Source: Bolinopsis microptera
Taxonomy: Eukaryota > Ctenophora > Tentaculata > Lobata > Bolinopsidae
NCBI RefSeq assembly: GCF_026151205.1
Contig: NC_087081.1
Location: 8,179,246-8,243,245 of the forward strand
DNA length: 64,000 bases
Direction of reading: 5' to 3'
Notes under the pieces: model-generated
What the model saw: only the letters and a program-made list of their open reading frames with translations
Database searches by the model: none
Told to the model about the DNA's origin: nothing
Program-made: the position numbers and the translations under genes
Shown here: positions 9,101 through 60,144 of the stretch, in pieces
Layout: every line of letters starts with the position of its first letter
Numbering within the stretch: position 1 is the first letter of the stretch

Positions 9101-12100
9101 TGATTAAATACATTTTACATCTATCATTCACTTAACAACAGTTAAGGGCTTTAGAAATAGCTCTTTTAGGTCTGGAAAAAATTAAAGTTGTGTTTCTCGT
9201 GCCATGTTCCCCTTGGTGCGGAGTGTTTAGATACAATTAGTTCTTTGTCAATAGTGTGCGATAGAAATTCAAGCACTTTGGCAATAATATAATGCAGCAG
9301 CTTATCATTAAGGCCAATGAATAGTGAATAATACAATTAGGCTGATGTTTAGTCTTATTACTGCAAAATATTTGACGTTATTTGACGTTAATTTTTACAT
9401 GCTGATGCCAAATTCTAAAATACCCAATATTTTATCCAATAAGTATTTCGTTTAACTCTGCCCTCATCATAGTCTTAGTTGCATACTAAACACTTAAACC
9501 CTTTTAAACATTGTTTTCCGGATAAAATAGGGTCGATTTTGAGTGTCAATCACTGTAAAATGAGATTTTGTGTGTCAATCCCTGTAAAATAGCGTGCCAC
9601 CAGCTTGATATCATTTTGTCGCCGACATATTTACACCTCTCGCAAAACTAATAATTAAGTAATTAGATTTGCCAAGACATGCTCAGGTTTGAAAGCCTAG
9701 CCATTGCTGAGTTACAAAGTTAATAGTGTACACCTGCAACCAGATAGGAAATGATGCAACAAAATTGGACGAGCTATGAGTTAGACTAATTGGAGGAGAT
9801 ATGAGTCAGGCTAAATGACTAATTGGACGAGATACAGTCGTACTGATTTGACGGGATAAAGTTAGGCTCGGCTGGATACGCTGATTAGTGTACGACAGTT
9901 CAGGAGTTATGGCTAATATCGCAATACTAGGTGGTAACCACCTAGAAATTCACAAGGCATTATTTGCCCTAATGGACAGCTGCACGCCGGTTACTTAAGC
10001 TGGGTTGGTATTTGTGCTTTTCTTTCACAAATAAGACGAAGCCCTACATGATAGTTGATACGCAGATATAAGGGTTTGGCTTATATTAGCTAGACTTGGT
10101 TAGACCTTTTTCATGCCAGAGTAAAGTATGTGATAATATAAAAGGGTGAAATATAAACTTGCAATTACTGAAGCCTAGTACGTTAGAAACATAACTACTA
10201 CAGTGTCACGCCTGCGCCAAGACGTCTTCAAGTTCAAGCCATGTAGCCAATCAATATTGCAATAAAACTTTCATGCGGATAATATCATGTTGTCATGGTT
10301 ACAAAGATGATATTGTTGCCATAGTTACCCGGACTGCCGACCAGTCGGTCGAGCTGGTAATATCTTTCACCCTGATACACATCTTCTGTAACAAACCTGC
10401 AAAAAGTGTCGTACAAAACGTGTCTTGTCTTACAAGTTACACCTTATCACTAGGGGCGTGTAGAATAACATGGAAATAATAATTCAAAGTTTAAGCTAAT
10501 ATATATGAACTTAGAGATTTTGTCTGACTGACTTATCGAACACTTCTCTGGTAATGGTAGGCATGGTGTAGGCTATCCTCATCAGACCCATTATCCCTGA
10601 TTTGTCCTCAATGCAGGTGTCGGCACCCTGCAGGGAGTCGTGTAATGTTTAGAAAGTAGTAAATATTAACCTGGTTATCATCATGATTGAGGTTATAAGT
10701 CTCTCTAGCATACGATCTGGTGGTGCAAGTTATTCGATCTATTTGATATTACAAAACATCAAAAATCTTTCAAAACTTACTTTATCAACAAGATAAGCGG
10801 AAATGTCAGATCTTGCGTAGTAGCTGGACACAATGATGGGGGTATGGTTCATGTTGTCCAGTACGTTTATATCTGCACCCTTCTCCACTAGCAGCTCCAT
10901 CACTTTCATTGCACCAAACTGAGCTGAAATATAACAGCTGATTATTAAGTATTGATGAAACCGTCTTTTAGTGTCTTCTGTAGAATAGAAACAAAATGTT
11001 TCAACTAAATCGCTACGATCTGGTATTGAAAAGATCGATGTAATGCATTAAAAAATTAGGAGAAGACTCATGACTACAACTCAGGCTGCGGTATCTTTAT
11101 ACTAATGAACATCTTCGCTTTTAGTCAGAAGCAGATAGTAGGATAATACGTTACATTGTTGTAATTGGGAACAGCCAAAATTTCTACTCTTTAGTCAAAA
11201 ATTCCAATTGTAACTGAGAGCGCGTGCTTCAGCCTTCCTTTGTAATACTAATAACCAACACGCCTGAATATCTAATTTTCCTCGGAAAAAGCCTCTGACA
11301 AAATTGAATTTATCTTGGCTGCAGACTATTTTAATCACGAAGGAAAAACCTTCTTCTCATTATGAGACGAACAGCTTTCTGTTTAAAGACTAAATTCCTT
11401 GCAAAAACGTGCCGTTGTAATTTCATCAAGAACATAACACTTTTGATGTCTACACTCATGTGCTTTAACCAACGAAGCCTAGTAACATCTGTTCACCAGA
11501 TTTTCCAAAGCCATATCTTATAAGAGCTATCCTACTTAAAAATAGTTATTACACGGGTGGTGGTAACTTGTTGAGACTTTTTCAAAGGTAACGCCATATC
11601 TCGTTAATAAGTCTCGTTTGTAAGGTGGTTGACACGAGTACTAGTAGGAGAGAAGTTTGCAAATAATAAGTGAATGGTATGTGAATTATGTACTTAGGAT
11701 ATTTGAATCATGCACGTTAAGTATTTGAATTATGTGCTAACCAGCAATATGCATTGCGGAGCGTCCGGTCTTTTTACATCTGTAGTTGATATCCGCGTTA
11801 TTCTTTATAAGCGTGTCCGCTGTATTGGGCTTCTGTGCTATAGCTGCAAGAAATGTTATTTTAGATAAACATAAAAGTATTTGTATAATAAACATACATT
11901 TGAAATAGCGGAAACGTTTATTGATGAAGTAGGAATTGTACATTAGTTTTTGCGGCCTAGATAGGTTTGTTAAAAGTATGGATTAACTTAGTGAAGTTGA
12001 ACCTACCGAAAAGTTTGGACTTACTGCAAGCATTACTGTGATCAAAGCATTTCTGTAGTCTAAGAAAAAATTTGATCAAAGAAAAAATTCGGGCGTACCA

Positions 12101-15100
12101 AGAATATTTCAACATCTGCCAGGTTATTTTAAACAAACCTGCATAAAATAGGGGGGTGTAACCGTCAAAGTCCTCAGCATTTGGATCACCACCGCAATTT
12201 ATCAACTTCTCCACTTCTTTTTTATCACAGTATTGGGCTGTTAATTGTTAATATAAGCAACTAAATTGGAAAGTATTCGTAAAATTTGCAGTATGTTAAT
12301 AAAATAATAACAAAGTGTAGGTAATTTTTATGCAGTGTCAAAAGGAAGTATAAAAAAGTAATACAAACCGCAGAAACAAGATTAGTTACCACCAGATATT
12401 TTATAAAAATCTTAACCTACCTGTATTATAATTTATGCTTATATCAATTAAATAAGGATAAACTAAACCTGGTTGAGCCAGGGGAACGGCCCACAGCAGG
12501 GCAATCAGCGATGTACCCGAAATCCTAACATAAACTTACTTGTAATGTGGAGAACAGTCTGACCATGGTAATCCATCAATGCCAAGTCGTGTGACTCAAC
12601 AAGGGCGTTAAACTTGTCGTCCTCCACCTGATTGGGTGGTTTTTATTGATAAACAGTTGATCGTTTCATTGGAATCACTGAACTTAATTTGGGGAAACAT
12701 GACTATTATGTTTGATAGGAAGTTTACGAAAGTCAGATATTGGTACAGTTATTGCTGCCACTGCTAGCTAACCCTAACTGTGCCATGAGTAGCAAAGAGT
12801 TACCAAAGAGTTACCAAAGAGTTACCAAAGAGTTACTAACGACTTACTAAAGAGTTTCTAACGACTTACTAAAGACTTACTCACCTCAACTGTGCAGTAA
12901 GGGGCCATGGTTAGAACAGCTCCTTGATCTAAAGCACATTGCTCCAAATATCTGAATAAGGCGTAGGGGTCATCTTGGTTCTCAAGTTGGGGTGGGATAT
13001 CTGAAGGTACAGATCTGATTAATTCCTTATATGGTAGTGTTACCATGTCAACATCACCTTATATGGTAGTGTTAACATGTCAACATCGCCTTATATGGTA
13101 GTGTTACCATGTCAACATCACCTTATATGGTAGTGTTACCATGTCAACATCACCTTATATGGTAGTGTTACCATGTCAACATCGTCTTATCTGATGATTC
13201 TTTCAAGAAAACTTATAATGTTTTTCTGAACAAAATTCAGTGATACCAGCATTGTAACATTGTCATCACTGAATGTTTCAGAAGAAATGATAAATTTTCT
13301 TAAAAAAATGAGTGTAGACAGGAAATGTTCAAATCAATTTCCTCCGACCATTAAGAGTCATCAAAGTGGTTTTTGAAGACACATGAATCCCGTTCATAGT
13401 TTCTAAACTTTATAACAGCAGATTCTTGAAAATATTTCCATAATATTTTCTTGTACCCGTAATCAATATCTAATCACAGAAATATTTGCCGTATAAATGC
13501 CGCTATAATGCACACAATTGTTATACATATCCCATATTATGTGCAACACACATTACAATGTTACACCTTGCTGCTCATTATCTTGCCATTTAATAAACGC
13601 ATCCGCAAGTTCTCAAGTGTATTTGACAATTAGATTGAGATTTACTACTCCAAATACCATTACTCCAAATACCACACGTAACATGTTGGGTGCAAATAAC
13701 AGTGTTGTAAAGAATCTATTGCTGCCCACCAAGGATATGTGTAAGTGAGTGCTGAGCTAACTGCAGGCTAGCTTTTGTAAGATGTCCAAATTAGCTGTGA
13801 TCGAATGTTCAGATCTAACATTAAACCACGAATTGGTTCAATCAACTACGACTATGTAGTCTCCACAGTGCTATGTAGTGAAGCAATATAAGTATATAAT
13901 AATGATGTAATATAATGTAACTATACAACAAAAGAATGATTAGCACTATCTCGCCATGGAAGACTAAGGAGTTATTTAAGAGTTACTGAAGAGTTCCTAA
14001 AGAATCACAAAACAGTTACTAAAGAGGCTGACCTGTTATGGGTAATCGTTGGGGTCCCTGAGAGTCTTTCAAGACATCTTTGAAGAGTGATATCGCAGTT
14101 TGTAACTGAGGAATATTATATTAGAGCACATGGAAAAAAAAAACATTATAACATGGTTCAGATAGGATAAACAATTTCGTATTTTTACAATAACTTATAA
14201 GAAAGAAAAGCTTGCAAGAGGCAGTGTAGCGCGATGGCTAATTCTCACAAAGTTTTCACAGCATGAGAGTAAGTTAAAACACCTTCTATTATTATGTCAC
14301 GTTATATATTATTTTAATATTTTGTTATAGTAATTATTTTATCAATATATAATGGAGTACCGCTGATCTTGACTCCGTCCACCTCTTTCTCCTCTTTGCA
14401 TCTGCTCGATCAAAGAAGTCGTAGACATAGTAGAAGAGTCTCCAGCAGTTCCACTTCCACGTCTCCACCCACCTACACAACCTCCCACAACACCATATAT
14501 CCCTGTCTGGATCTGCGTGGTGCCGTAGATACCTTCTTGCTTTCTGCCTCAGCCTATACGTTATATTAAACAACCTATCCTCGTTCAGTAGGATTATCCG
14601 GAAGAACTTTTCAATAACCGTCTCCTTCGCCTCCTCCACTTCAGGAATAGAATCAGTATAATGAGAACTAACAACAGACACCACATCCTCCAGCAACACA
14701 TCAGGGGTGGTTCTAGGATGCTTGTATTCATGTCTGTGGAGCTCAGGGCTGGGGAGTAGGTGAGGAGATTGGAGGTGATGTAGGTAGGGTGGGAGGGGTG
14801 GTGTCCTGGAGGGGGAGGGTGGGACAGGTGGGATTTGGTGGAAGATGCTGTAGCTGGTTTTTGATTTCTTACGTAGTCGTGGTTTTGGAATTGCTTCACC
14901 GTAATCTTCTGGAGCTTGTGAATCACCTATTTTACTTTTGCGTCGATTGGGTTTTGCAGGGGGTTTATTTGATTCTATCTGTTCGATGAATTTTGATGCA
15001 AGACCCAGTCTGTTGTATTTCATCGAAGGCACAGTATCTCTGCCTTCATCACGAGGCAGGGGTCTTTGTCGAGTAATATCAGATTTATGCTTGGAACTAG

Positions 15101-17582: not shown

Positions 17583-18811
17583 TTTAAGTCCGGTTTATCG
17601 CGTGACTCTGTTATCAACTATGTTATTCTTATCAGTTGATCAGTGTTCAGAGGACACATATTATCCTCTCCTATCCATGTGGTAACCCTGAGACGCTTTT
17701 AGAATCGATTGATTGACAACCAGCAGTATTATAAATGGCATTATGAGTAATGTATTACAGCAACATAAGAAATAATGAAAATCTTTCAATTAATAAAGTT
17801 ACAAGCAAGCCAGATGGCTATTTATTTCAAAATAACTGAAGATTATCAAACAGCAGAAGTATGACACCGAAATGCACAACCAATTATCCAGACCATCCTG
17901 TTATAAATGGAGTAAATGATAATTAGATAGCCAGAAAATCTTCCTTGTGCCTTGTTAAAGTACGAATGCAAACTATTTTTTAATTGATGTCAATTATCAT
18001 TTTTCCGTAAAGCATGTAATTACGGGCAGTTAATTTTGCCTTCATAACGGAACAAGGAATAAATTAGATTACTTATTCGGACACCTATGTTCACTCATCA
18101 GACTTATATGAGCCATATTTGAACCATTTCATGTGGTTAGAGCCGTATTTGTATCGATTGATGTGGTTTGAGATGAAAGAAAACCACAGACGCTTCCTTT
18201 TGTTTGGTAATTTTGATATCTCTAAGTGGAAAGGGTCTAATTTGAAATATGACGATTGCACTATGCAATATCTGACCACTTGATAATTTTAGGGACCAGA
18301 TAACGACAAACTGTATGTGTGTTTATATTACTTTTTCTACAAAAAGATATCAATCAGCAACAAAAATCAGTTCTAGAATAAGAAAGGAATAATGTGGATT
18401 GTCATATATTCCGATTAAACTAGTTATACATATGCAAATGAAAAGTACACTTGGGACAACAAACTGAAAATGCGATATGTTGTTAACAAATGCAAGCCAT
18501 TAAATTATGTGGTGATGTGATAATAATAGATCGAACAATAAAAGAATGAAAGCTCATTTCAGAGGAAATTCCAATTGGCATAGTTTATTATATTCATTAA
18601 GCCACCATTATTTGGTTTAATTAGGTATGTAAAAGCTTTTTTAGAAACTTTTAGTTACCAAGCAATTTTAAAACGTTTATGTCGACGGCTAAATTTTGGT
18701 ATGGCAGAAATTCTCCCAAAAGCTTAATTATGTATGGTTTACAAATATCACAAGGTGTAGCGTATTACATGTGTTTAAAAAAGAGAAGAAGAAAAAAGAA
18801 AATATGTTTAC
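17583..18811. other. Intergenic or intronic stretch
   Basis: AT-rich. The zinc-finger gene must continue here after its 18812 donor (phase 0), but I could not place the next exon. A short candidate after CAG near 17690 encodes only about eight residues and is not reported as a gene. Confidence 0.4.
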
Positions 18812-20375
18812 CCCGAAAAAATCCAGCAATCCAACGGCTATTTCAGACATTTTTTCTCTGGTTCCATCCATCTCATCATCATCTTTTAAAAGCAACACCC
18901 CCTTCTCTGAATCTGGGGGTTGTCCATTGGGAGGGTTTTTATCTTCAAAATCTTCGCTGGGGGGTTTTTCATCTTGAGCCTGTGGTTCTACTTCAACTTG
19001 TGGTAATTCTTCCAAAGATGTCTTAAACAGTATAAGTGGCTCTGACACTCTTACAGTAAACTTTTTATTAACAAAACTTTCAGTTCGACAATACGGATCA
19101 AAAACAATATCACCACGCGAGTCATAGCTATCCAAGAGAGCTGAACAATCAGTCCCATACCCCGGAATGTTCTCCGAGCAGCACAGCACACAACCCAGCT
19201 TCCCCCTGGTACACTTTGCATGTACTGGACTGTCACACATGTCACACACTTTAGTGTTTCTGGGGGTTAGTAACCATTCCATACAGCTGCCACACCTTGT
19301 TTTAGAGCTTGAGGGAGGGTCCATGTCGAGCTGCTGTGATTTCCAGCAGTCTTTAAGAAGGAACTTCAACTAACATGCAACAACATAATGAGCATAGAAC
19401 ACAATATAGACTATTATAAGAACTTAAGAACTACTTAACATCGTCAAACTAACTGTAAGAAACTAACATCACTTTCACTAAACCTCACCAGTCACCACAA
19501 CTAGCCGTTTCCCAGTTGAGAACAATTTAAAGAAATGTTGAAATAGGTGCGATCAAATTTGCTTACTTATAAAAAATCTAATCACTGTTGCATGTATGTT
19601 GCAGTGACTGCATTCAGTAAGTGAAATGATCACTTCGATCTTGTGAAAATATTGCTGAACACTGACTAGACTTTAGAGGAGAATATTTAACGATCTGTCG
19701 AATAAGCATATTATACGTGTCTACCCAATAACGGGTTACAGTCAATAAAACGTCAGATCATTCGTGCACTTGAAGTCATCAAAGATGAACAAAATTCGAT
19801 AAAGGAATGCAACCAATCGCAAAAGTGAAGACTTTCATAAATAGAATCTATAAACCACGTGTAGCCCATACTGGCTAAAAATATGTAGCATCGGGTTAAG
19901 TGGACAAGCCACTTAAGTGGTCAAACCTCTTGTTTCTATAATTAATAGACAAAAGAGACATATCAATGAAAGCCAACTTGGCATTAGTATTAAGAATGAG
20001 ATTTGTGTTATCTACAGAGCATTCATGGCATTGCACACTTGCGTTTGAAAAAAAAAAACTTATCCAGAAGCATGCGATTGAGTTCATTATCGGCGATCCA
20101 CGATATTGACGCTTCTCTTTTGCTAGTGAATTAGAGGGACAATAAACCAATCCACTCAATCCTATTTTGGGTTCAATTAGGATTAAGAGTTATGGAATGT
20201 TATCAGTCCTTACCCTAAAACAGGTGAGTTTTTGATAAATTCTCCTCCAACGAGAGCCTTTCCCCGTCGTGTTCCCATGGCTCTTTATTGAGATTTCCTT
20301 CGCAGCAGTTTCAGCATCTACCAGATTATCGGCTGCATTCTTTTCTCTGCTCTTAGTCTTAGAATCACTCATCAT
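18812..20375 (-). CDS. C4HC3 zinc-finger protein (two exons, 3' end not found)
   Basis: Exon 1 (20375-20214) opens with ATGATG and encodes 54 residues, ending RWRRIYQKLTCFR, with donor GTAAGG. Exon 2 (19333 or 19330 to 18812) joins in phase 0. It carries a cysteine cluster, C-x2-C-x12-C-x2-C-x4-H-x2-C-x5-C-x2-CC (start CGSC, middle CDMCDSPVHAKC, end CVLCC), spaced like a cross-brace zinc module of the PHD/FYVE/RING type. An acidic, Pro-rich stretch follows (VEVEPQAQDEKPPSEDFEDK). Donor GTAAAC at 18811 follows LLDFFG. If exon 1 is not used, an ATG at 19324 (MDPPSSS) could start the protein. It may read a protein or lipid ligand; no specific family is claimed. Confidence 0.62.
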
Positions 20376-37497: not shown

Positions 37498-39959
37498 TAC
37501 AACGCGTACCAACAACTTAACATTTTTTCGTTTATTGCAGTAAGTATCCTACGAATATTTTCAATCAAAGCATAAAATGACATGTCCTACTCAACAATTT
37601 GCCTGATCTAAAAATATAAAATCATCCAGGCAGACAGAACCACGTACTCAATACATACCACTTCCACAAAACACATACCTAAACCAAAATGAAGACCTGC
37701 ACAGTAAACCTACGCAAGCGCGCCTAGCAATCCATACTATTATATTGGGAAGAGCCGACTCTGGTAATTCGGGTACACAAAACCCGGCCAGCCTGCATGT
37801 TTAAATATATTCAGAGCAGCAAGTATTTGCAAGTAGGACATGTTATTTCCCGATTTGATTCAAACAATTCAAACAATTCGTACCCTGAGTTACAATACTA
37901 GTTACTAACAATTCGTACGGTGTTGGTACCAGGTACGGTGTTCTGTTCAATTTTCTTTCGTTATATCCTCTACCAACAAAATATATTGATGTTGGGATGC
38001 CACCGAGCTTATGAGGAATTGCAAAAGTATTTGTTTTTCCAGAATACTGTATGTACAAAAATGAACATTAGGCTAAAATGAGATATCAAAGAATCTATCA
38101 ATGATCTGACCGGTCAACTGTAGACTCATTATTCTCAAATTTCTAATGGAAAATATCAGCTGGCACAACGGAAGTACGTAACGCTAAAACGAAAAGAAAA
38201 CAATTAAAAAGGCCTCACCCCTTTACTGATCCTTTTCATCGCCCCACAGATTGCCTCCTGAATTATAGGCTGTGGATCTTGACTGAGTCAGTTGCAAAAT
38301 CCGCGGTGGAAAACGACTGCTCAAGAGTCATACCAAAAGGTTCACAGAATTTAATACCATACTCTTTCAAAGTTCTAAGTTTCTGGATAAGAAGCTAAGA
38401 AGGTGTTCAGTAAGGCATTAATGACCTACTAGGGCTTGAGTTTTTTTAACATGAACTGTTTAGTGGAATCTGCAGTTTTATTTCAAGCAAATTATGGATA
38501 TTGTTTGTCTAATTTGCCGGTTGCAAATCCATTTTAACCTAACTTGTAGACTTTAACTTTGTACAACTATAATACTACACGTAACTGTCGACCCCACTTA
38601 ACATTTGATGAGCTAATTAAACATAAATAGTCTGAAAACATGATGCTTTTTTCCTGCAATCAGACAGTTAATGAGTGTTAAACTTCCAATAAAATCTAAG
38701 TACAACGCGTGCAGGGTACCAACAACTTAACATCTTTTCGTTTATTGCAGTGACTATCCTACGCATAGTTTGAATCAAAGCGGGAAATGACGTCCACAAT
38801 TCACAAAACACATACCTTAACCAAAACCAAAGTAATCAAAGCATTATGAAGACCTGAACAGTAAACCTACGCAAGCAATCCATACTATTGGGAAGAGTTG
38901 ACTCCGGTAATTCGGGTACACAAGACCCGGCCAGCCTGCATGTTTAAATATATTCAGAGCAGCAAGTAGTTGTAAGTAGGACATGTTATTTCCCGATTTG
39001 ATTCAAACAATTCGTAGGGTGAGTTACCATAGTAACAAACAATTCGTACGGCGTTGGTACGGTGTTCTGTTCAATTTGCTTACGTTATATCCTCTACCAA
39101 CAAAATATATTGATGTTGGGATGCCTCATGCCGCCGAGCTTCTGAGGAATTGCAAAAGTATTTGATTTCCAGAATACTGCATGTTCAGAAATGAACATTA
39201 GGCTAAAATGAGATATCAAAGAATCTATCAATGATCTGACCGGTCAACTGTAGACTCATTATTCTCAAATTTCTACTGGAGAATATCAGCTGGCACAACG
39301 GAAGTACGTAACGCTAAAACGAAAAGAAAACAATTAAAAAGGCCTCACCCCTTTACTGATCCTTTTCATCGCCCCACAGATTGCCTCCTGAATTATAGGC
39401 TGTGGATCTTGACTGAGTCAGTTGCAAAATCCGCGGTGGAAAACGACTGCTCAAGAGTCATACCAAAAGGATCACAGAATTTAATACCATACTCTTTCAA
39501 AGTTCTAAGTTTCTGGATAAGAAGCTAAGAAGGTGTTCAGTAAGGCATTAATTACTAGGGCTTGAGTTTTTTTTAAACAACTGTTTAGTGGAATCTGCTG
39601 TTTTATTTCTAACAAATTATGGATATTGTTTGTCTAATTCGCCGGTTGCAAATCCATTTTAACCTAACTTGTAGAATATACTTGTTTTAATACTTTCGAC
39701 AATACTATATAAAAAATAATTTGAGCCTGAAGAATGAAGATGGCGTTGATGCCGAAAATTTGCCTACATTCCTAACTTCCTGTTTCATGTGTCCTTGTCT
39801 CTTCCAACCGGATATTATCCAACTATCACTAACTTTTAGACTTAAACTTCGTACTTTATGTTCGATGGGCTTATAATTAAACATATATAGTCTGAAAACA
39901 TGATGCTTTTTCCTGCAATCAGACAGTTAATGAGTGTTAAACTTCCAATAAAATCTAAG
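37498..39959. repeat. 1.2-kb tandem segmental duplication
   Basis: Copy 1 spans 37498-38700 and copy 2 spans 38701-39959. Both start TACAACGCGT, contain the same ordered sequence, and end AACTTCCAATAAAATCTAAG. Large parts are almost identical (for example 38080-38400 against 39200-39520). Copy 2 has about 170 bp of extra or replaced sequence around 39675-39840 and several small indels. Each copy carries one version of the last exon of the minus-strand gene. Confidence 0.85.
38263..38382 (-). CDS. Distal copy of the terminal exon
   Basis: 120 bp with the same CAG acceptor, frame and stop as 39393-39512. The two differ at one codon in the coding part: GAA (Glu) here, GAT (Asp) in the proximal copy, in the KFC-x-PFG motif. 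It could be a mutually exclusive alternative last exon or an unused duplicate. Confidence 0.55.
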   Translation of the reverse strand, partial: KLRTLKEYGIKFCEPFGMTLEQSFSTADFATDSVKIHSL

Positions 39960-47760: not shown

Positions 47761-49191
47761 TTGGCAGCAGGAGAAGAGGAGAAAGCAGCAGTCAGCATCC
47801 AATCCCGATACAGAGGTTATAAAGCAAGAAAACATTTGGGTCTGCATGCTTCCAATATTTTACTTGAAAAAAAAAACAAACAAAAAAAACATTTGTAACA
47901 AGATTACGATTAGACCTCTTTGAAATGTGACAATTTCGACACACTTCTAGGACTATTAGACACTAGACAGAGTAGGTTTTAAAGCGCTAATGTTCTCTGA
48001 ATTTCTCTGAGAACTACAATGTCTTTTTTGACTTTTTGCGGAGCAATATTAGTGAAGAAGTCTAATTGTATTCGACAAACGTACAGCTGTAGAGGGATGA
48101 AACAAATTTTTTCAAAATCAAATCTTTCAGCCGCAGAACCAGCAGCAGCCGCTCCCGTAGAAGCCGCTCCAGCAGCCGAAGCTGCCCCAGCAGAAGCCGC
48201 TCCTGCAGCCGAAGCCGCCCCAGCAGCCGAAGCCGCTCCAGCAGCAGAAGCTGCCCCAGCAGCCGAAGCCGCTCCAGTAGCCGAGGCACCAGCAGCCGAA
48301 GCCGCACCAGCAGTCGAAGCTGCACCCGAAGCCGAAGCCGTACCAGTAACCGAATCCGCACCAGTAGCCGAATCCGCACCAGTAGCCGAATCCGCACCAG
48401 TAGCCGAAGCTGCACCATCTGCCGAAGCCGCACCAGCAGCCGAAGCTGCACCCGCTGCCGAAGCCGCGCCAGCTGCCGAAGCTGCACCAGCTGCCGAAGC
48501 CGCACCAGCTGCCGAAGCCGCACCAGCTGCCGAAGCCGAACCAGCTGCCGAAGCCGAACCAGCTGCCGAAGCTGCTCCAGCTGCCGAAGCCACAATAGCA
48601 GCCGAAGCTGCTCCAGCTGCTGAAGCCGCACCCGCTGCCGAAACACCAGCAGCAGAGGCACCAGCGGCAGAGGAACCAGCAGCAGAGACACCAGCAGCAG
48701 AGGCACCAGCACCAGCAGCAGCAGAGGCACCAGCAGCAGAAGCCTCTCCAGCAGCAGAAGCCGCTCCAGCAGCAGAAGCCGCTCCAGCAGCAGAAGCCGC
48801 TCCAGCAGCAGAAGCCGCTCCAGCAGCAGAAGCAGCTCCAGCAGCTGAAGCCGCACCCGCTGGCGAAGCCGCCCCAGCAGCTGAAGCACCAGCAGCAGAG
48901 GCACCAGCAGCAGAGGCCGCCCCAGTAGCCGAAGCACCAGCAGCAGAAGCTGCACCAGCAGCCGAAGCTGCACCAGCAGCCGAAGCCGCACCCGCAGCCG
49001 AAGCTGCACCCGCTGCTGAAGCTGCACCCGCTGCCGAAGCTGCACCCGCTGCCGAAGCTGCACCCGCTGCCGAAGCCGCACCAGCAGCCGAAGCTGTCCC
49101 TGCTGCAGCCCCAGTAGCAGATGCCGCCGTCGAAACGCCGGCAGCCCCCGCCGCAGCGCCTCCCGCAACGGAAGCAAAACCATCTGAGTGA
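47761..49191 (+). CDS. IQ-motif protein with long Ala/Pro/Glu repeat (5' end not found)
   Basis: Exon 47761-47839 (acceptor TATCTTTCAG) encodes LAAGEEEKAAVSIQSRYRGY followed by KARKHL, a good IQ calmodulin-binding motif (IQxxxRGxxxR). It joins in phase 1, through a weak GTCTGC donor, to 48131-49191 (acceptor AATCTTTCAG). That exon encodes about 353 residues of degenerate five-residue units (PAAEA and variants such as PVAES), ending ATEAKPSE. Third codon positions vary (GCC/GCA/GCT, CCA/CCC/CCT) while residues stay constant, which supports this frame over the others that are also open. An IQ motif followed by an acidic Ala/Pro/Glu tail recalls neuromodulin-type proteins in layout only. Upstream exons with the start codon were not found. 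Confidence 0.65.
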
Positions 49192-51900: not shown

Positions 51901-52294
51901 GTCCTGCTTATCTTTTGTTATGATGTTTTATCTTGTAGAAGATTAACTAATAACTGTACATTGAAATAAATGTGCTCATGATTATATTCCTGAGTCAGGA
52001 AACTCCGTCGTATAGCGTAAGTCCGTACGACCTTGAAGGGTCCTGTAGGGGTCATGTTTTATAACTATTATTATTAAGAATACCTTGTGAGAAATAATAA
52101 GGTAGTCGGAAATTAGGGGATTTTTGAATAAAACCTACCGGCTACCCCGTTAACAATTAATTGATTTCGACTTTATTAACTTAATAAACACGACAAAGCA
52201 TGCTTGGTTACTATGACACTATTTGAACAGTTGATAGTACTGATGTATAAACTTGATTTCACCAGTAGGCAGTAGCATTAAGTCAAATTAACTA

Positions 52295-53259
52295 CCTTAC
52301 TCGGGAATATTATAACCGGGATAAAGTGGTGGGTTTTGGAAGATTCCGCCATATTTTTCCCGGTCAAAAATTTTACCAGTCATAAAAAAACCCGCCGATT
52401 CAGATTATGGGGTTCCAAGGGGTGGTGATCATCATATTTTACATGAAGTCTCATATGTGCTAGAGAAGACTTTTGAAGCAGTGGATGGAGGGCTGTAACT
52501 TTATTGGCGGTTGCTACCATAATTTCGTTATAAAAATCACAATTTGGTTATAGAAATCAGATTTCAGGGTGGACCGTGATTCTGAGATTCTCACTTCTCT
52601 TGCCCATGAATCAGTGAATCGTAGAGAAGAAAACAATTTATATGTTATAGAAGAAAAAAATAATAATAATAATATATAATATATATTATTATAATAATAA
52701 TGTCTCTAAAGATTGATCGCTTCTCGTGTGCAGTGTGTAGACTAAAGAAAGAGGTAGTTTTTCCCGTTGAAGTAACTTGTGGCCACATTTGTTAGAAGTG
52801 AGTAACCTGTGCCACTATTTCATGGTCCACGGTGGATTGATTACTGGAGCAGTTGAAGATGCAATTGCAAAGCCAAGACGTTCCCAAATACCAAGCGGTG
52901 GGCAGGAAATTAAGCTCAGGCTGACCTTCAGAGCAGTAGCCCCATTAGCGGACAAAATGAAAGTCTTGTTAATACAACAATACAACTTCGAATTTGACGG
53001 TCAGCAGCTCAGGGGGATATCAATAATGATAATGGCGGGGACATTAGCGATAATGAGAATGAGAATACGCTTTAATGAAGATTTGACTTATTATTGCTTA
53101 GATTTATTTTCCTTTAATTAAAAAAAAAGTTGAAAGGTCGGCCACCGGTAAATACATGACCGGGATAATTTGGCGGGTTTTTGGAAAGTCCGCCATATTT
53201 TTCCCGGTCATTAATTTTCCCAGTCATAAATTAACCCGCTATAATATTCCCGAGTAAGG
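52295..53259. mobile_element. 965-bp TA-flanked inverted-repeat DNA transposon
   Basis: Ends CCTTACTCGGGAATATTATA and, at the right, its near-perfect reverse complement, with TA on both sides. Inside the termini lie two direct repeats of about 80 bp (52314-52395 and 53156-53245) containing GGGTTTTTGGAAAGTCCGCC-like and ATATTTTTCCCGGTC words. The centre holds a decayed gene (see next entry). No transposase is present, so it is non-autonomous. TA duplication points towards the Tc1/mariner group but does not prove it. Confidence 0.75.
52700..53098 (+). pseudogene. Decayed RING-finger plus SUMO-like gene inside the transposon
   Basis: ATG 52700 opens SLKIDRFSCAVCRLKKEVV followed by VEVTCGHIC, the first half of a RING finger, then hits TAG and TGA codons where the next zinc ligands would be. 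A different frame continues from about 52803; its later part, EIKLRLTFRAVAPLADKMKV, then FEFDGQQLRG, resembles the SUMO/Rad60 ubiquitin-like fold (F-K-V-x-P-L-x-x-x-M..FxFDGQ-x-L) with a shortened middle. A further frame shift leads to an acidic tail (NNDNGGDISDNENEN) and stop. Both assignments are by eye; the RING part is the firmer. Confidence 0.5.
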
Positions 53260-53269
53260 TAATTAAGTA

Positions 53270-53575
53270 TCTCTACTATAATTCAAAGAATTATTTCTGT
53301 CTGTATGTCTGTACGACCGCCCACGTGCAAATAGATGAAAAATAGGAATTTAGGTAACAACCAAAACGTTCCATAGCAACGGTGTTTTAATGCACACATG
53401 CACGTGCAAAGATTGTTTTAACGTCATTTTGATCGGTTTTGTGGTAATTACGTTGTGTTTAAAGTGTTTTATATTTAAATCGGCTGTATCTTCGGTTGAG
53501 ATGGATATTTTTTGATGCGATTAAAACTTTCTTTCAATACTACTAGCTTCGTCCCTGTTACCACGGGCTTTCTAG
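53270..53575. mobile_element. Helitron-like element, copy 1 (306 bp)
   Basis: Starts TCTCTACTATAATTCAAAGA directly after A and ends CCACGGGCTTTCTAG directly before T, as Helitrons do. A short palindrome (CCCTGTTACCACGGG) sits about 9 bp from the 3' end. The 5' TCTGTCTG run and the words CGACCGCCCACGTGCAAAT and TTTTGTGGTAATTACGTTGTG are shared with the copies at 53577 and 55458. Non-autonomous. Confidence 0.7.
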
Positions 53576-53576
53576 T

Positions 53577-53881
53577 TCTTACTTATAATTCAAAGAATTA
53601 TTTCTGTCTGTCTGTCTGTACGACCGCCCACGTGCAAATTAGATGAGAAATAGGAATTTGCATAGTAACCATAGTAACGGTGTTGAACGTGCACGTGCAA
53701 TGATTGTTGTTACGACATTTTTATCGGTTTTGTGGTAATTACGTTGTGTTCAGTGCAAGCTACATTTTAATTCCCTTTTCATCGGCTGAATCTTCGGTTG
53801 TGACGGATATTTGTTGATGCTATAAAAACTGACTACCAAAGAATACTAATACTATTACCTTCCTCCCTGTGACCACGGGCT
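53577..53881. mobile_element. Helitron-like element, copy 2, adjacent to copy 1
   Basis: Begins TCTTACTTATAATTCAAAGA right after copy 1 and runs to CCACGGGCTT, where the CTAG end is replaced by the start of a third, short fragment (ACTTATAATTCAAAGAATTA, to about 53930). Contains the exact X-box word GTAACCATAGTAAC at 53665-53678. Confidence 0.6.
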
Positions 53882-53930
53882 TACTTATAATTCAAAGAAT
53901 TATTTATGTACGACCGTTTTTTATCTAAAA

Positions 53931-55457: not shown

Positions 55458-55759
55458 TCTTTCTATATTATAATTCAAAGAATTATTTCTGTCTGTCTGT
55501 CTGTCTGTCTGTCTGTACGACCGCCCACGTGCAAATTAGATGAGAAATAGGAATTTGCATAGTAACCATAGTAACGGTGTTGAACGTGCACGTGCACATG
55601 CAATGATTGTTGTTACGACATTTTTATCGGTTTTGTGGTAATTACGTTGTGTTCAGTGCGAGCTACATTTTAATTGGCTGTATCTTCGGTTGTGACAGAT
55701 ATTTTTTGATGCGATAAAAACTAATATAATCTTCCTCCCTGTGATCACGGGCTTTCTAG
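55458..55759. mobile_element. Helitron-like element, copy 3 (302 bp)
   Basis: Starts TCTTTCTATATTATAATTCA after A, contains (TCTG)n, then matches copy 2 closely, and ends GATCACGGGCTTTCTAG before T. Carries GTAACCATAGTAAC at 55562-55575. Complete by its termini and non-coding. Confidence 0.7.
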
Positions 55760-56712: not shown

Positions 56713-59700
56713 TTTTTTTTTTAAAATGTGTAGGCAAGATAAGCCTAAGTGTGGCAGTGAAAATTGAAAAATAAGTTGCAGAATAAATTGCAGTGACTGA
56801 CTGTCAAATGCATTTTCGCAGTTCATTTATTTGACTGCACAGTGCACTAACGTTTAGGATTCTTACAGCTGTTATATTTTGCTAATATTTTGTTTAAAAG
56901 TTGTAAAGGACAAAGTTCTTGTCCGTCCACGAAAGGTTTTCTAGGTCAAGTTTTTGTTTGTCCAGTAAGTAACGTACAATGTTGTCCTTGTATGAATTAA
57001 TAAACTTATCTTGTAACTTAGGTACGTTGAAGGGAAGGATTTTGTTTATTTCGTTTATCGTGTTGTTATATAATCGTGGTCCTACGTTAGAGATGCTATA
57101 ATCGGTGATCCGTAATCTGTTGAACTTAATTTCAAAATACTTTGGATTTCTCCTTTCCGTTTGTCTAAGCGGTGATTTTTCAAATATACTACAGATACTC
57201 GATGGTGCTACTCCCATATAAACCTTGTGCATCAAAGTTAGACAGCTTTTAGCAATGAGGTTAGGAAGAGCCAAAATTCCTATTTTGTTGAAGATGGATT
57301 TTGTGTGAGATGGTAGTTTACGTTTTTCTTTGTCGTAAAAATAGTTATGATAATCTGAATCAGTGGCGCGAATAGCTTTCTTTTGAGCAGAGAATAAAGA
57401 CTGAATGGAATTTAAAGATTTAGTACCCCAAACAGTAGCGCAGTAATACAGGTGAGATTGAATTAAACTATTGTATAGCATTTTTTGAGCTTTATTCGGA
57501 ATGGAACTTTTAAGTTTCATCATTACGCCTGCATTTCTGGATATTTTAGTCTTTAACTGTTTAATGTGCTGGCTCCAGCTAAGTTTTGAGTCAATAATGA
57601 CACCTAAAAATCGTTCATGTTCACTTTTCACTAGTCGCTGTCCTTCTATACTAATATTTATATCCTCTGGTAATCTGTTAGTGAATATCATGTATTTAGT
57701 TTTTCCTATATTGAGTTTAAGACCGTTGTTTTTAACCCATGTCTGTACAGTATTTAATACTCTGTTTGCACGCATGTTCAGTTCAGTGTACGTGTCGGCA
57801 GAAACGATGATGTTTGCATCATCAGCGAAGAAAATATAATGGGCTATATCGCTTACATTTGCAAGGTCGTTTATGTAAATAATGAACAATATAGGACCAA
57901 GAATGGACCCTTGAGGAACTCCATGTTCCAATCCCATTTTTTCTGAACTGCAACCGTTGACGTGAACATACTGTTTCCGGTTAGTTAGATAAGACTCAAA
58001 CCAGGATAAGCTAAGGCCTCTTACACCATAGTGCTCCAGCTTATGTAGCAGTATCTCACTGTCTACTAGGTCAAACGCCTTGGAGAAGTCAAGAAGCAGT
58101 AATGCTGACACTTGCTTCCTTTCTAGAGCTTTATGTATGTTAAACTGAGCTTCAAGCAACGCATGTTCACAACTGTGACCCGATCTAAAACCAAATTGCG
58201 ACGCATATAGAATATTACGTGATTTTAGGTGCTTTACTAAACGTGCATGCATTATTTTTTCGAATATCTTTGAGAAGCAGGACAAAAGTGAGATTGGTCT
58301 GTAGTTTGTAATTTCGCTGCGCGATCCTCCTTTATGGAGTGGGATAACCTTAGCAAGTTTGAGCTTTTCGGGGAATACTCCTTCGTGAAGGGAGTGTGAG
58401 ATCAGGTGATTAACTACTGGAGACAGCACATTGCAAACCTTTTTAAGAGGCTGTATATTCATATCTGAAGTCGATTTGTTCTTAAGATCATGTATGATTT
58501 CAGCAATTTCGGAGGGCGAGGAGTCCTCCAGCTCCATATCAAAATCACATCGACTTGATTGGGGAAGAGAATGTCCTACTGATCCTGCACCGCGAACCAG
58601 ATTGTTTTCGCTCTTTAGGTTCTCAGCTATATTAGTAAAATAATCATTAAAACTGTCAGCTATATCTTGTGAGTCGGTTATAACTCTATTTTTATAGTTA
58701 ATCTTACTTATTTTTATTTTTTCTTTTGATTTCTTGTTTAATATTTGATTAATCATTTGCCATTGTAATTTGCTATTGCTCGCATGCTTTTTAAAATATG
58801 ATGCGTAATACTTCTTTTTCGCAATATCTACTTGTTTTTCAACAAACTTTTTCATATGCTTATAAGTTTTTTCATTTTTTTCAGTAGGCTCTTTAACAAA
58901 GGATTTATATAGTTGGTTCTTTCGATTGCATGCACATTGAAGCCAATCTAATATCCACGGTTTAGAGTTTTTTCTGTGGTTTGATTTTTTCTTTTTAACT
59001 GGAAAACACTCATTATAGACTTCTTCATATTTAGTGTGAAAAGCTTCAAATTTTGTATTTGTCCCGTCAACGTTGTGTAAAAAATTCCAATCAATAGACG
59101 CTATTTTCTCCTCAAAACGAGCGATTTTCTCTTCATTTATTACTCGGTTTGATGATTCACAAGTTTCATTTTTCAATTTATTTCCTATTCTATTAGTGTC
59201 GAGAAGTATGCCGGTAAATGTGGCAAGGTGATCAGATAGCGATTCAGTTATAATGCCTGACTTTGTTATAGCATGGCATTGGTTTACGAAAATGTGATCA
59301 ATAAGTGTAGCACTGTGACAAGTAATACGAGTTGGTCGTGATATCGTTGGTGCGAATCCATACTCTGCAAAAATATCAACATATTTAGTAGTATGGTCAT
59401 TTACGCCGTATTCTAATAGATTAATATTGGTATCACCTAGAAATAATACGTTTTTGTTGCTATGTCGCGCCAAATCTTTTAGGGTGTTTTCCAATTTTTC
59501 TAAGTAACTGGGGACATTACCACTGGGAGACCGATACATATTGCATAGTATGACGTTTTTGTGGCCATTTTGAGCTATCTCTATTAACTGAAATTCGCCA
59601 ACGTTTGGATCATCTCTATAAGATAATTCAGATCGTGCAGTGACATCAGATAATTCACAGAGATTCTTGTTTACATAGGTTACTAGACCACCGCCCTTAC

Positions 59701-60144
59701 CAGAGTCCCTTGCGGGAGCCTGAATAAAGGGGGGATGAAAGCCTTCTAACTCTAATTCTTTTCCTTGAAATGCCATACTTACAACCGTGCAGTTTGTTTC
59801 GTTGAAACACAGAACATCAAATTTTAGGTGCTGTTCAATTTCATCACGTATATTAGAGATTGCTTTGCTCAAAGATCGAATATTAAGAGATTGAACTTTA
59901 AATTCATAAGGCCTACTCGTGTTGATTTGCCGTGGTTCGTAGTATTTACAGCTATTTAGTACATCTGAGCAGTTATCCCATGGATTAAAGTTTAAGTCAT
60001 TGTTTTCTTCAAAAGTATTACCTATATAATTAGAGTCATGGTTTCTATGGTATGGGTTAAATTTTGCGCTATTCTCGTAATTACCGTGTACGGTGTATAA
60101 TTGTCTAGGTGATACCTTTGTTAATTTGTTGTCTTGTCAAGTTA
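56713..60144 (-). mobile_element. LINE (Jockey/CR1-like superfamily), long open reading frame intact
   Basis: Minus-strand non-LTR retrotransposon. The coding frame runs from just after a stop near 60144 to the stop at 56894; past the stop about 180 bp of 3' sequence end at a run of ten A (56722-56713, minus strand), a possible tail. The 5' end is uncertain; no ORF1 is recognisable upstream, so the copy may be 5'-truncated. No target-site duplication was identified. Confidence 0.85.
56894..60144 (-). CDS. LINE endonuclease-reverse transcriptase polyprotein
   Basis: About 1,080 codons are open. After a hydrophilic lead comes an apurinic-type endonuclease (start VQSLNIRSLSKAISNIRDEI; motifs CFNETN, GKGGGLVTYVN, LGDTNIN, LIDHIFV, ESLSDH). 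The reverse transcriptase follows (KVIPLHKGG, NYRPISLLSCFSKIFEKIM, SQFGFRSGHSCEHAL, LLDFSKAFD, GVPQGSILGP, YIFFADDANI with the catalytic Asp pair, LNIGKTKYMIF). The C-terminal part is a basic, Tyr-rich thumb without an obvious RNase H. The first canonical ATG falls well inside the open frame, so the true start is unclear and a 5' truncation is possible. No stop or frameshift interrupts the catalytic regions. Confidence 0.9.

What the first reader, a model, noticed from the sequence alone, without database searches (positions are those of the whole stretch)
52295..53259. TA-inserting transposon carrying a decayed RING plus SUMO-like gene
The sequence shows perfect-looking inverted ends with TA duplications, subterminal direct repeats, and a central gene relic with a RING half (FSCAVC..CGHIC) followed by a ubiquitin-like segment ending FEFDGQQL and an acidic tail. 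A RING next to a SUMO-like module would be a compact ubiquitin/SUMO ligase-type accessory protein. Some eukaryotic DNA transposons carry ubiquitin-like or protease genes, but I do not know a described TA-flanked element with this pair. The intact version elsewhere in the genome could be a new element class that uses the host SUMO/ubiquitin system.
Basis: partly seen in the sequence, partly recalled or inferred. Interest (0 to 1): 0.75.

Follow-up and report, generated by a model that had tools for sequence, protein, structure and literature searches.

The report
Decayed non-autonomous inverted-repeat DNA transposon
This is one worn copy of a small DNA transposon, probably in an animal genome; its ends are real, but the claimed RING-plus-SUMO gene inside it is not clearly separable from chance with the data at hand.

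Summary
The element is real. Perfect 20-bp inverted ends (52295-52314 / 53240-53259; 0.01 matches expected) enclose two 84-bp subterminal direct repeats, 85% identical, with hairpin potential (strong right, weak left). No second copy lies in the window, and no transposase was found in the frames tested.

The target duplication is not certainly TA. The inverted match runs outward to TTAA on both sides, in register, so TTAA fits at least as well. Neither piggyBac nor Kolobok end rules are met.

The gene claim is weak. It needs three reading frames. Pfam finds nothing in single-frame pieces or in three joined queries, while SUMO2 as control hits Rad60-SLD. The RING-like half has non-canonical spacing; it ranks 1st of 2060 window frames in pairwise tests but 5th of 2060 by profile, a score that 25 of 30 simulated windows reach. 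The SUMO-like frame ties for 3rd of 588 and is 7th of 1099.

Best reading: a decayed non-autonomous TIR transposon, moved in trans, whose centre may hold a zinc-finger gene relic. No whole genome is held, so copies could not be compared.

The parts
52288..52294 (+). Left flank of the element: TTAA (52288-52291), then C, then TA (52293-52294); target duplication either TTAA or TA
52295..52314 (+). Left terminal inverted repeat, 20 bp, CCTTACTCGGGAATATTATA
   Evidence: 0 mismatches, 0.01 matches expected in the window
52312..52395 (+). Left subterminal repeat, 84 bp, direct copy of the right one; weak hairpin (z -1.5, 12 of 200 shuffles as good)
52396..53155 (+). Central region, 760 bp, no transposase found in the frames tested
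52700..52792 (+). Possible zinc-finger (RING-like half) relic, 31 codons from an ATG to the stop after CGHIC
52771..53118 (+). Open frame of 116 codons with the SUMO-like letters (52909-53010); similarity to SUMO not above background
53156..53239 (+). Right subterminal repeat, 84 bp, strong hairpin (z -5.4, 0 of 200 shuffles as good)
53240..53259 (-). Right terminal inverted repeat, 20 bp
53260..53266 (+). Right flank: TA (53260-53261), A, TTAA (53263-53266)

Best explanation
It is a single decayed copy of a non-autonomous cut-and-paste DNA transposon of about 0.97 kb, probably in an animal genome. Shown: matching inverted ends, a symmetric short flank that can be a target duplication (TTAA or TA), and a paired subterminal repeat with hairpin potential. 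Inferred: a DDD/E transposase made by a full-length partner elsewhere in the genome bound the inverted ends together with the subterminal repeats, cut the element out and inserted it at TTAA (or TA). No transposase was found in the centre. The centre may hold the relic of a small gene with one half of a zinc finger, either an accessory gene of the parent element or a captured piece of a host gene; whether it ever coded for a RING or SUMO-like protein is open.
For: Perfect 20-bp ends, 0.01 expected; 32-nt outer inverted repeat reaching TTAA on both sides; 84-bp subterminal repeats, hairpin strong on the right and weak on the left; no Pfam match for 3 single-frame queries from the relic (two overlap) or 3 joined queries, and for 7 further frames only one match, E 0.16 and below its cut-off. 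Animal-type surroundings are an inference from a reverse transcriptase frame and ankyrin-like and ion-channel-like matches that lie below Pfam's cut-offs.
Against: No second copy was found: one in the window; none in viral contigs with the 20-bp end or the 21-bp subterminal piece; 3 loci with a single 17-bp match each, no inverted partner in the DNA held; one lone match in a bacterial MAG. Mobility is therefore inferred from anatomy alone. An open frame of 116 codons is somewhat longer than expected for the centre (44 of 1000 simulations), and the RING-like half is the best pairwise match in the window, so a real coding relic is possible.
Confidence: 0.8

Rival explanations
1. One reading: the parent element is a transposon that carries a gene for a RING plus SUMO-like protein acting on the host ubiquitin/SUMO system, and this is a decayed copy. 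(This and the next two concern what the centre holds; they are compatible with the best explanation of the element as a whole.)
For: RING-like half ranks 1st of 2060 frames against RNF125 (56, next 41; RNF125 was chosen as its own best hit) and against an 11-member RING panel, 0 of 2000 shuffles as good; best PDB sequence match RNF125 at E 0.24. Local alignment of the 116-codon frame to SUMO2 of 43, reached by 8 of 3000 shuffles. The tail in a third frame is acidic.
Against: No Pfam hit for single frames or for three joined queries, while the SUMO2 control hits Rad60-SLD at 6.3e-27. No PDB hit up to E 10 for the 44-residue SUMO-like query or for a 123-residue joined query. In one search two of the 588 window frames score higher than 43 and two others tie with it. 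Joined SUMO query 6.5 bits, with 12 of 30 simulated windows reaching that; RING frame 7.9 bits, with 25 of 30; joined RING query lower, 6.1 bits. H-x1-C spacing and no last two zinc ligands. Best stretch alone has i-E 7.7. Single-sequence folds are low-confidence and helical (pLDDT 48.1 and 45.5), which says little either way.
Confidence: 0.08
2. A captured piece of a host gene (Pack-type, transduplication) inside a non-autonomous element.
For: Pack-type TIR elements of plants capture chromosomal DNA between their ends (PMC13317346, passages seen). The open frame and the RING-like half would fit a host gene fragment.
Against: No host gene with this sequence could be looked for, as the genome is not held. 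The coding signal itself is weak.
Confidence: 0.25
3. The centre is non-coding filler and the protein-like letters are chance.
For: Simulated windows reach the RING and SUMO profile scores; SUMO scores lie within the window background; a relaxed RING-half pattern occurs in 38 of 200 simulated windows; nothing in Pfam.
Against: Pairwise RING rank 1 of 2060; 5 of 5000 simulated centres show the relaxed pattern, and 44 of 1000 a frame as long as 116 codons.
Confidence: 0.5

Closest known systems
piggyBac / TTAA-type non-autonomous elements (for instance coral CMITEs, PMC2872659, passages seen)
   Same: TTAA on both sides; CCTT fits the CC[C/T]T terminal motif; short inverted ends; no transposase found in the copy
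   Different: Three bases lie between TTAA and CCTT; 0.97 kb against about 100 bp for CMITEs; no link to a piggyBac transposase seen
Kolobok superfamily (PMC9587614: outline with abstract, background section and passages seen)
   Same: TTAA duplication if the outer reading is right; some lineages carry accessory proteins, and KolobokP has direct repeats at its ends
   Different: Kolobok ends are 5'-RR..YY-3'; here the ends under that reading are CT/TT. KolobokP repeats are around 450 or 660 bp and terminal, not 84 bp and subterminal
Tc1/mariner- or other TA-type non-autonomous elements (TA rule recalled)
   Same: TA on both sides of the 20-bp ends
   Different: No transposase found; TTAA in register outside is unexplained under this reading
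Kaonashi (KIU) elements: Mutator-like elements with a captured Ulp1 domain (PMC13317346, passages seen)
   Same: Precedent for a DNA transposon with a gene of the SUMO system
   Different: Plant MULEs of the non-TIR kind, a protease domain and not a RING or SUMO-like protein

Membership tests
Non-autonomous TIR DNA transposon | Terminal inverted repeats with a target duplication | tested here: met
   TTAA or TA, not decided
Non-autonomous TIR DNA transposon | No transposase gene in the copy | tested here: met
   no transposase match in the frames given; not every short frame was given
Non-autonomous TIR DNA transposon | Many copies with the same boundaries | not testable with these tools
   no whole genome held; one copy in the window
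piggyBac | TTAA duplication directly followed by a CC[C/T]T terminal motif | tested here: not met
   TTAA and CCTT both present, three bases between them (rule from PMC2872659)
Kolobok | TTAA duplication with 5'-RR and YY-3' termini | tested here: not met
   termini CT/TT under the TTAA reading (rule from PMC9587614)
Tc1/mariner | TA duplication (recalled) | tested here: inconclusive
   TA present, but nested in a longer inverted match to TTAA
Tc1/mariner | DDE/D transposase | tested here: not met
   none found in this copy; a partner elsewhere could not be sought
RING finger | Eight zinc ligands in C-x2-C..C-x-H-x2-C..C-x2-C spacing (recalled) | tested here: not met
   five Cys/His positions, H-x1-C, then the frame closes
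RING finger | Profile match | tested here: not met
   no Pfam family up to E 10; home-made profile at background
SUMO / Rad60-SLD | Profile match | tested here: not met
   none for single or joined pieces, control positive; home-made profile at background

The most novel reading that the evidence does not exclude
The parent element is an animal TIR transposon of a lineage with TTAA or TA duplication, palindrome-bearing subterminal repeats and an accessory gene that fuses a RING-type finger to a SUMO-like domain, used to act on the host ubiquitin/SUMO system.
Probability: 0.06. Interest if true: 0.65.

Novelty: new member of a known kind. Interest (0 to 1): 0.15.

Why it matters
As it stands it is an ordinary relic of a lineage that I could not name.

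Tried and rejected
Looked for further copies: window scan for the 20-bp end and self-comparison (the best match of the element outside itself is 22 bases at E 0.015); viral contigs with three DNA patterns and with the 116-aa frame (15 pattern matches, none confirmed by tblastn); genome contigs with a 19-bp end (one lone match in a Saccharibacteria MAG, its surroundings read, taken as chance); phages and plasmids by blastn (3 and 7 records, the listed matches lying in the AT-rich stretch before 52702). L002-L004 were not read; each holds one match only. Rfam at gathering threshold finds nothing in the window.

The subterminal repeats as KolobokP-type long direct repeats were considered and rejected for length, place and terminal bases. 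A piggyBac cysteine-rich domain as the source of the CxxC..CGHIC letters was considered, because the piggyBac transposase carries a PHD-like cross-brace finger (PMC8086355, passages seen). It was not tested on its own beyond the absence of any Pfam match.

It was then searched: no Pfam family and no PDB sequence up to E 10.

Papers: searches. In their listings and in the passages or sections of the five papers opened (PMC12460157 one passage; PMC9587614; PMC13317346; PMC8086355; PMC2872659) I saw no TA- or TTAA-flanked transposon with a RING plus SUMO-like gene. That is a statement about these searches only.

Full report
What is there. The window is 35-42% G+C in 4-kb steps and looks like animal DNA, which is an inference: a reverse transcriptase frame with an endonuclease domain (56897-60136), ankyrin-like and ion-channel-like frames on the minus strand whose matches lie below Pfam's cut-offs, many tandem and dispersed repeats. 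No whole genome is held for it.

The ends. CCTTACTCGGGAATATTATA occurs twice in 64,000 bases with up to three mismatches allowed, both times perfect and in opposite orientation, at 52295-52314 and 53240-53259; 0.01 matches are expected. Both copies are flanked by TA. The inverted repeat does not stop there: the repeat finder gives arms 52288-52319 and 53235-53266, 32 nt, 91% complementary. Written out, the left end is TTAA-C-TA-CCTTACTCGGG and the right end, read inward, TTAA-T-TA-CCTTACTCGGG. TTAA occurs at 0.9% of window positions and 1.2% locally, so its occurrence in register on both sides is not expected under a TA duplication. A TTAA duplication with one mismatch in the first base of the ends explains it more simply. 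One copy cannot settle this; I put TTAA at roughly two to one (inference).

Subterminal repeats. Just inside the ends lie two 84-bp copies in direct orientation, 85% identical. Each contains an imperfect palindrome (ACCGGGA ... TCCCGGT). As single DNA strands the right copy folds far better than its shuffles (z -5.4, 0 of 200 as good), the left copy only slightly (z -1.5, 12 of 200). Repeated motifs near transposon ends can be extra binding sites of a transposase; the piggyBac cysteine-rich domain binds such a motif (PMC8086355, passages seen). That this holds here is inference.

The centre. Between the subterminal repeats lie 760 bp (52396-53155) of 37% G+C. No transposase was found: Pfam gives no match for 3 single-frame queries (two overlap) and 3 joined queries from the relic, and for 7 further frames only one match, to a viral family at E 0.16 and 12.2 bits against a cut-off of 23.6, which I take as chance. 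Not every short frame was given.

The claimed gene. The claimed protein thus needs two changes of frame; a change directly after CGHIC crosses no stop. The RING half has H-x1-C where RING domains have H-x2-C (recalled), and lacks the last two ligands.

Tests of the RING half. Pfam: nothing up to E 10. PDB sequences: three weak matches for the 31-residue piece, best RNF125 at E 0.24 for the whole chain, 7.7 for the best single stretch; none for a 123-residue joined query. Against the RNF125 piece by pairwise alignment it ranks first of 2060 window frames of 20 or more codons (56, next 41), but that target was its own best hit. Against eleven other RING pieces it again ranks first of 2060 by mean score (36.9, next 32.9), and no shuffle of 2000 reaches it. 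Against a profile made from the same eleven pieces it is fifth of 2060 at 7.9 bits, and 25 of 30 simulated windows have a frame at least as good; the joined RING query scores less, 6.1 bits. The relaxed pattern C-x2-C-x(9-39)-C-x(1-3)-H-x(1-3)-C occurs once in the window; simulated windows average 0.22, with 38 of 200 having one, and simulated centres have it in 5 of 5000. The pattern was relaxed to include the case; the stricter form is absent from the window. My reading: a zinc-finger relic is possible, not shown.

Tests of the SUMO-like stretch. Pfam: nothing, while human SUMO2 as control hits Rad60-SLD at 6.3e-27. PDB sequences: nothing up to E 10 for a 44-residue query, 52882-53013. Local alignment of the 116-codon frame to SUMO2 scores 43, reached by 8 of 3000 shuffles; SUMO1 and ubiquitin score near the shuffle mean (1241 and 1367 of 3000 shuffles as good). 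But among 588 window frames of 40 or more codons, two score higher (45, 44) and two others also reach 43 (best of SUMO2 and SUMO1). With three SUMO proteins it is seventh of 1099 frames of 30 or more codons by mean score, level with the sixth. With a SUMO profile the frame is 23rd of 2062 entries, and the hand-joined version third at 6.5 bits, a score that the best single frame of 12 of 30 simulated windows reaches or passes. A pattern that I wrote to fit the stretch is absent from 60 simulations, which has little weight for that reason. The signal is at background. A 116-codon open frame appears in 44 of 1000 simulations of the centre; the window as a whole has 20 frames that long, against a mean of 3.2 in 50 simulated windows. 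Single-sequence structure predictions have mean pLDDT 48.1 and 45.5 and show helices only; at that confidence they count neither way.

Other copies. None further in the window. In viral contigs the 20-bp end and a 21-bp subterminal piece give nothing, a 17-bp piece of the end gives three loci with a single match each. In the prokaryote genome contigs a 19-bp piece gives one lone match in a Saccharibacteria MAG. Phages and plasmids give only matches to the AT-rich stretch. These are collections of viruses, plasmids and prokaryotes, so absence says little about an animal element.

Families. piggyBac elements have TTAA duplications and a CC[C/T]T terminal motif (PMC2872659, passages seen); here three bases stand between TTAA and CCTT. 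Kolobok ends are 5'-RR..YY-3' (PMC9587614); here they are CT/TT under the TTAA reading. TA-type superfamilies remain possible. I therefore name no superfamily. For gene cargo of the SUMO system, the precedent seen here is the Ulp1 domain captured by plant Mutator-like elements, Kaonashi (PMC13317346, passages seen).

Verdict. A real, ordinary, decayed non-autonomous transposon copy of a lineage I could not name; the RING-plus-SUMO gene is not supported above chance, with a RING-like half as the only part that keeps some interest. Confidence figures: the three rivals concern the content of the centre and are compatible with the best explanation of the element.

Noticed in passing
53277-53909 and 55468-55757: Three copies of a repeat of about 300 bp, two of them head to tail shortly after the transposon; the first two begin TATAATTCAAAGAATTATTTCTGTCTG.
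   Followed up: no
56897-60136 (-): Open frame of 1080 codons with endonuclease and reverse transcriptase domains, a long non-LTR-type retrotransposon frame (the type is my inference).
   Followed up: partly
1960-2223 and 10745-12247 (-): Ion-channel-like and ankyrin-like frames on the same strand, matches below Pfam's cut-offs, possibly one TRP-type channel gene (the name is my inference).
   Followed up: no
37506-38550 and 38716-39675: Two direct repeat copies of about 1 kb, 85% identical.
   Followed up: no
48001-49191: Long open frames on both strands over an 18-bp tandem array (Ala/Glu/Pro-rich repeats on the plus strand).
   Followed up: no
18731-19369 (-): Frame with a cysteine-rich stretch and weak C1 and RING-like matches well below threshold (E 0.66 and 2.7).
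   Followed up: no
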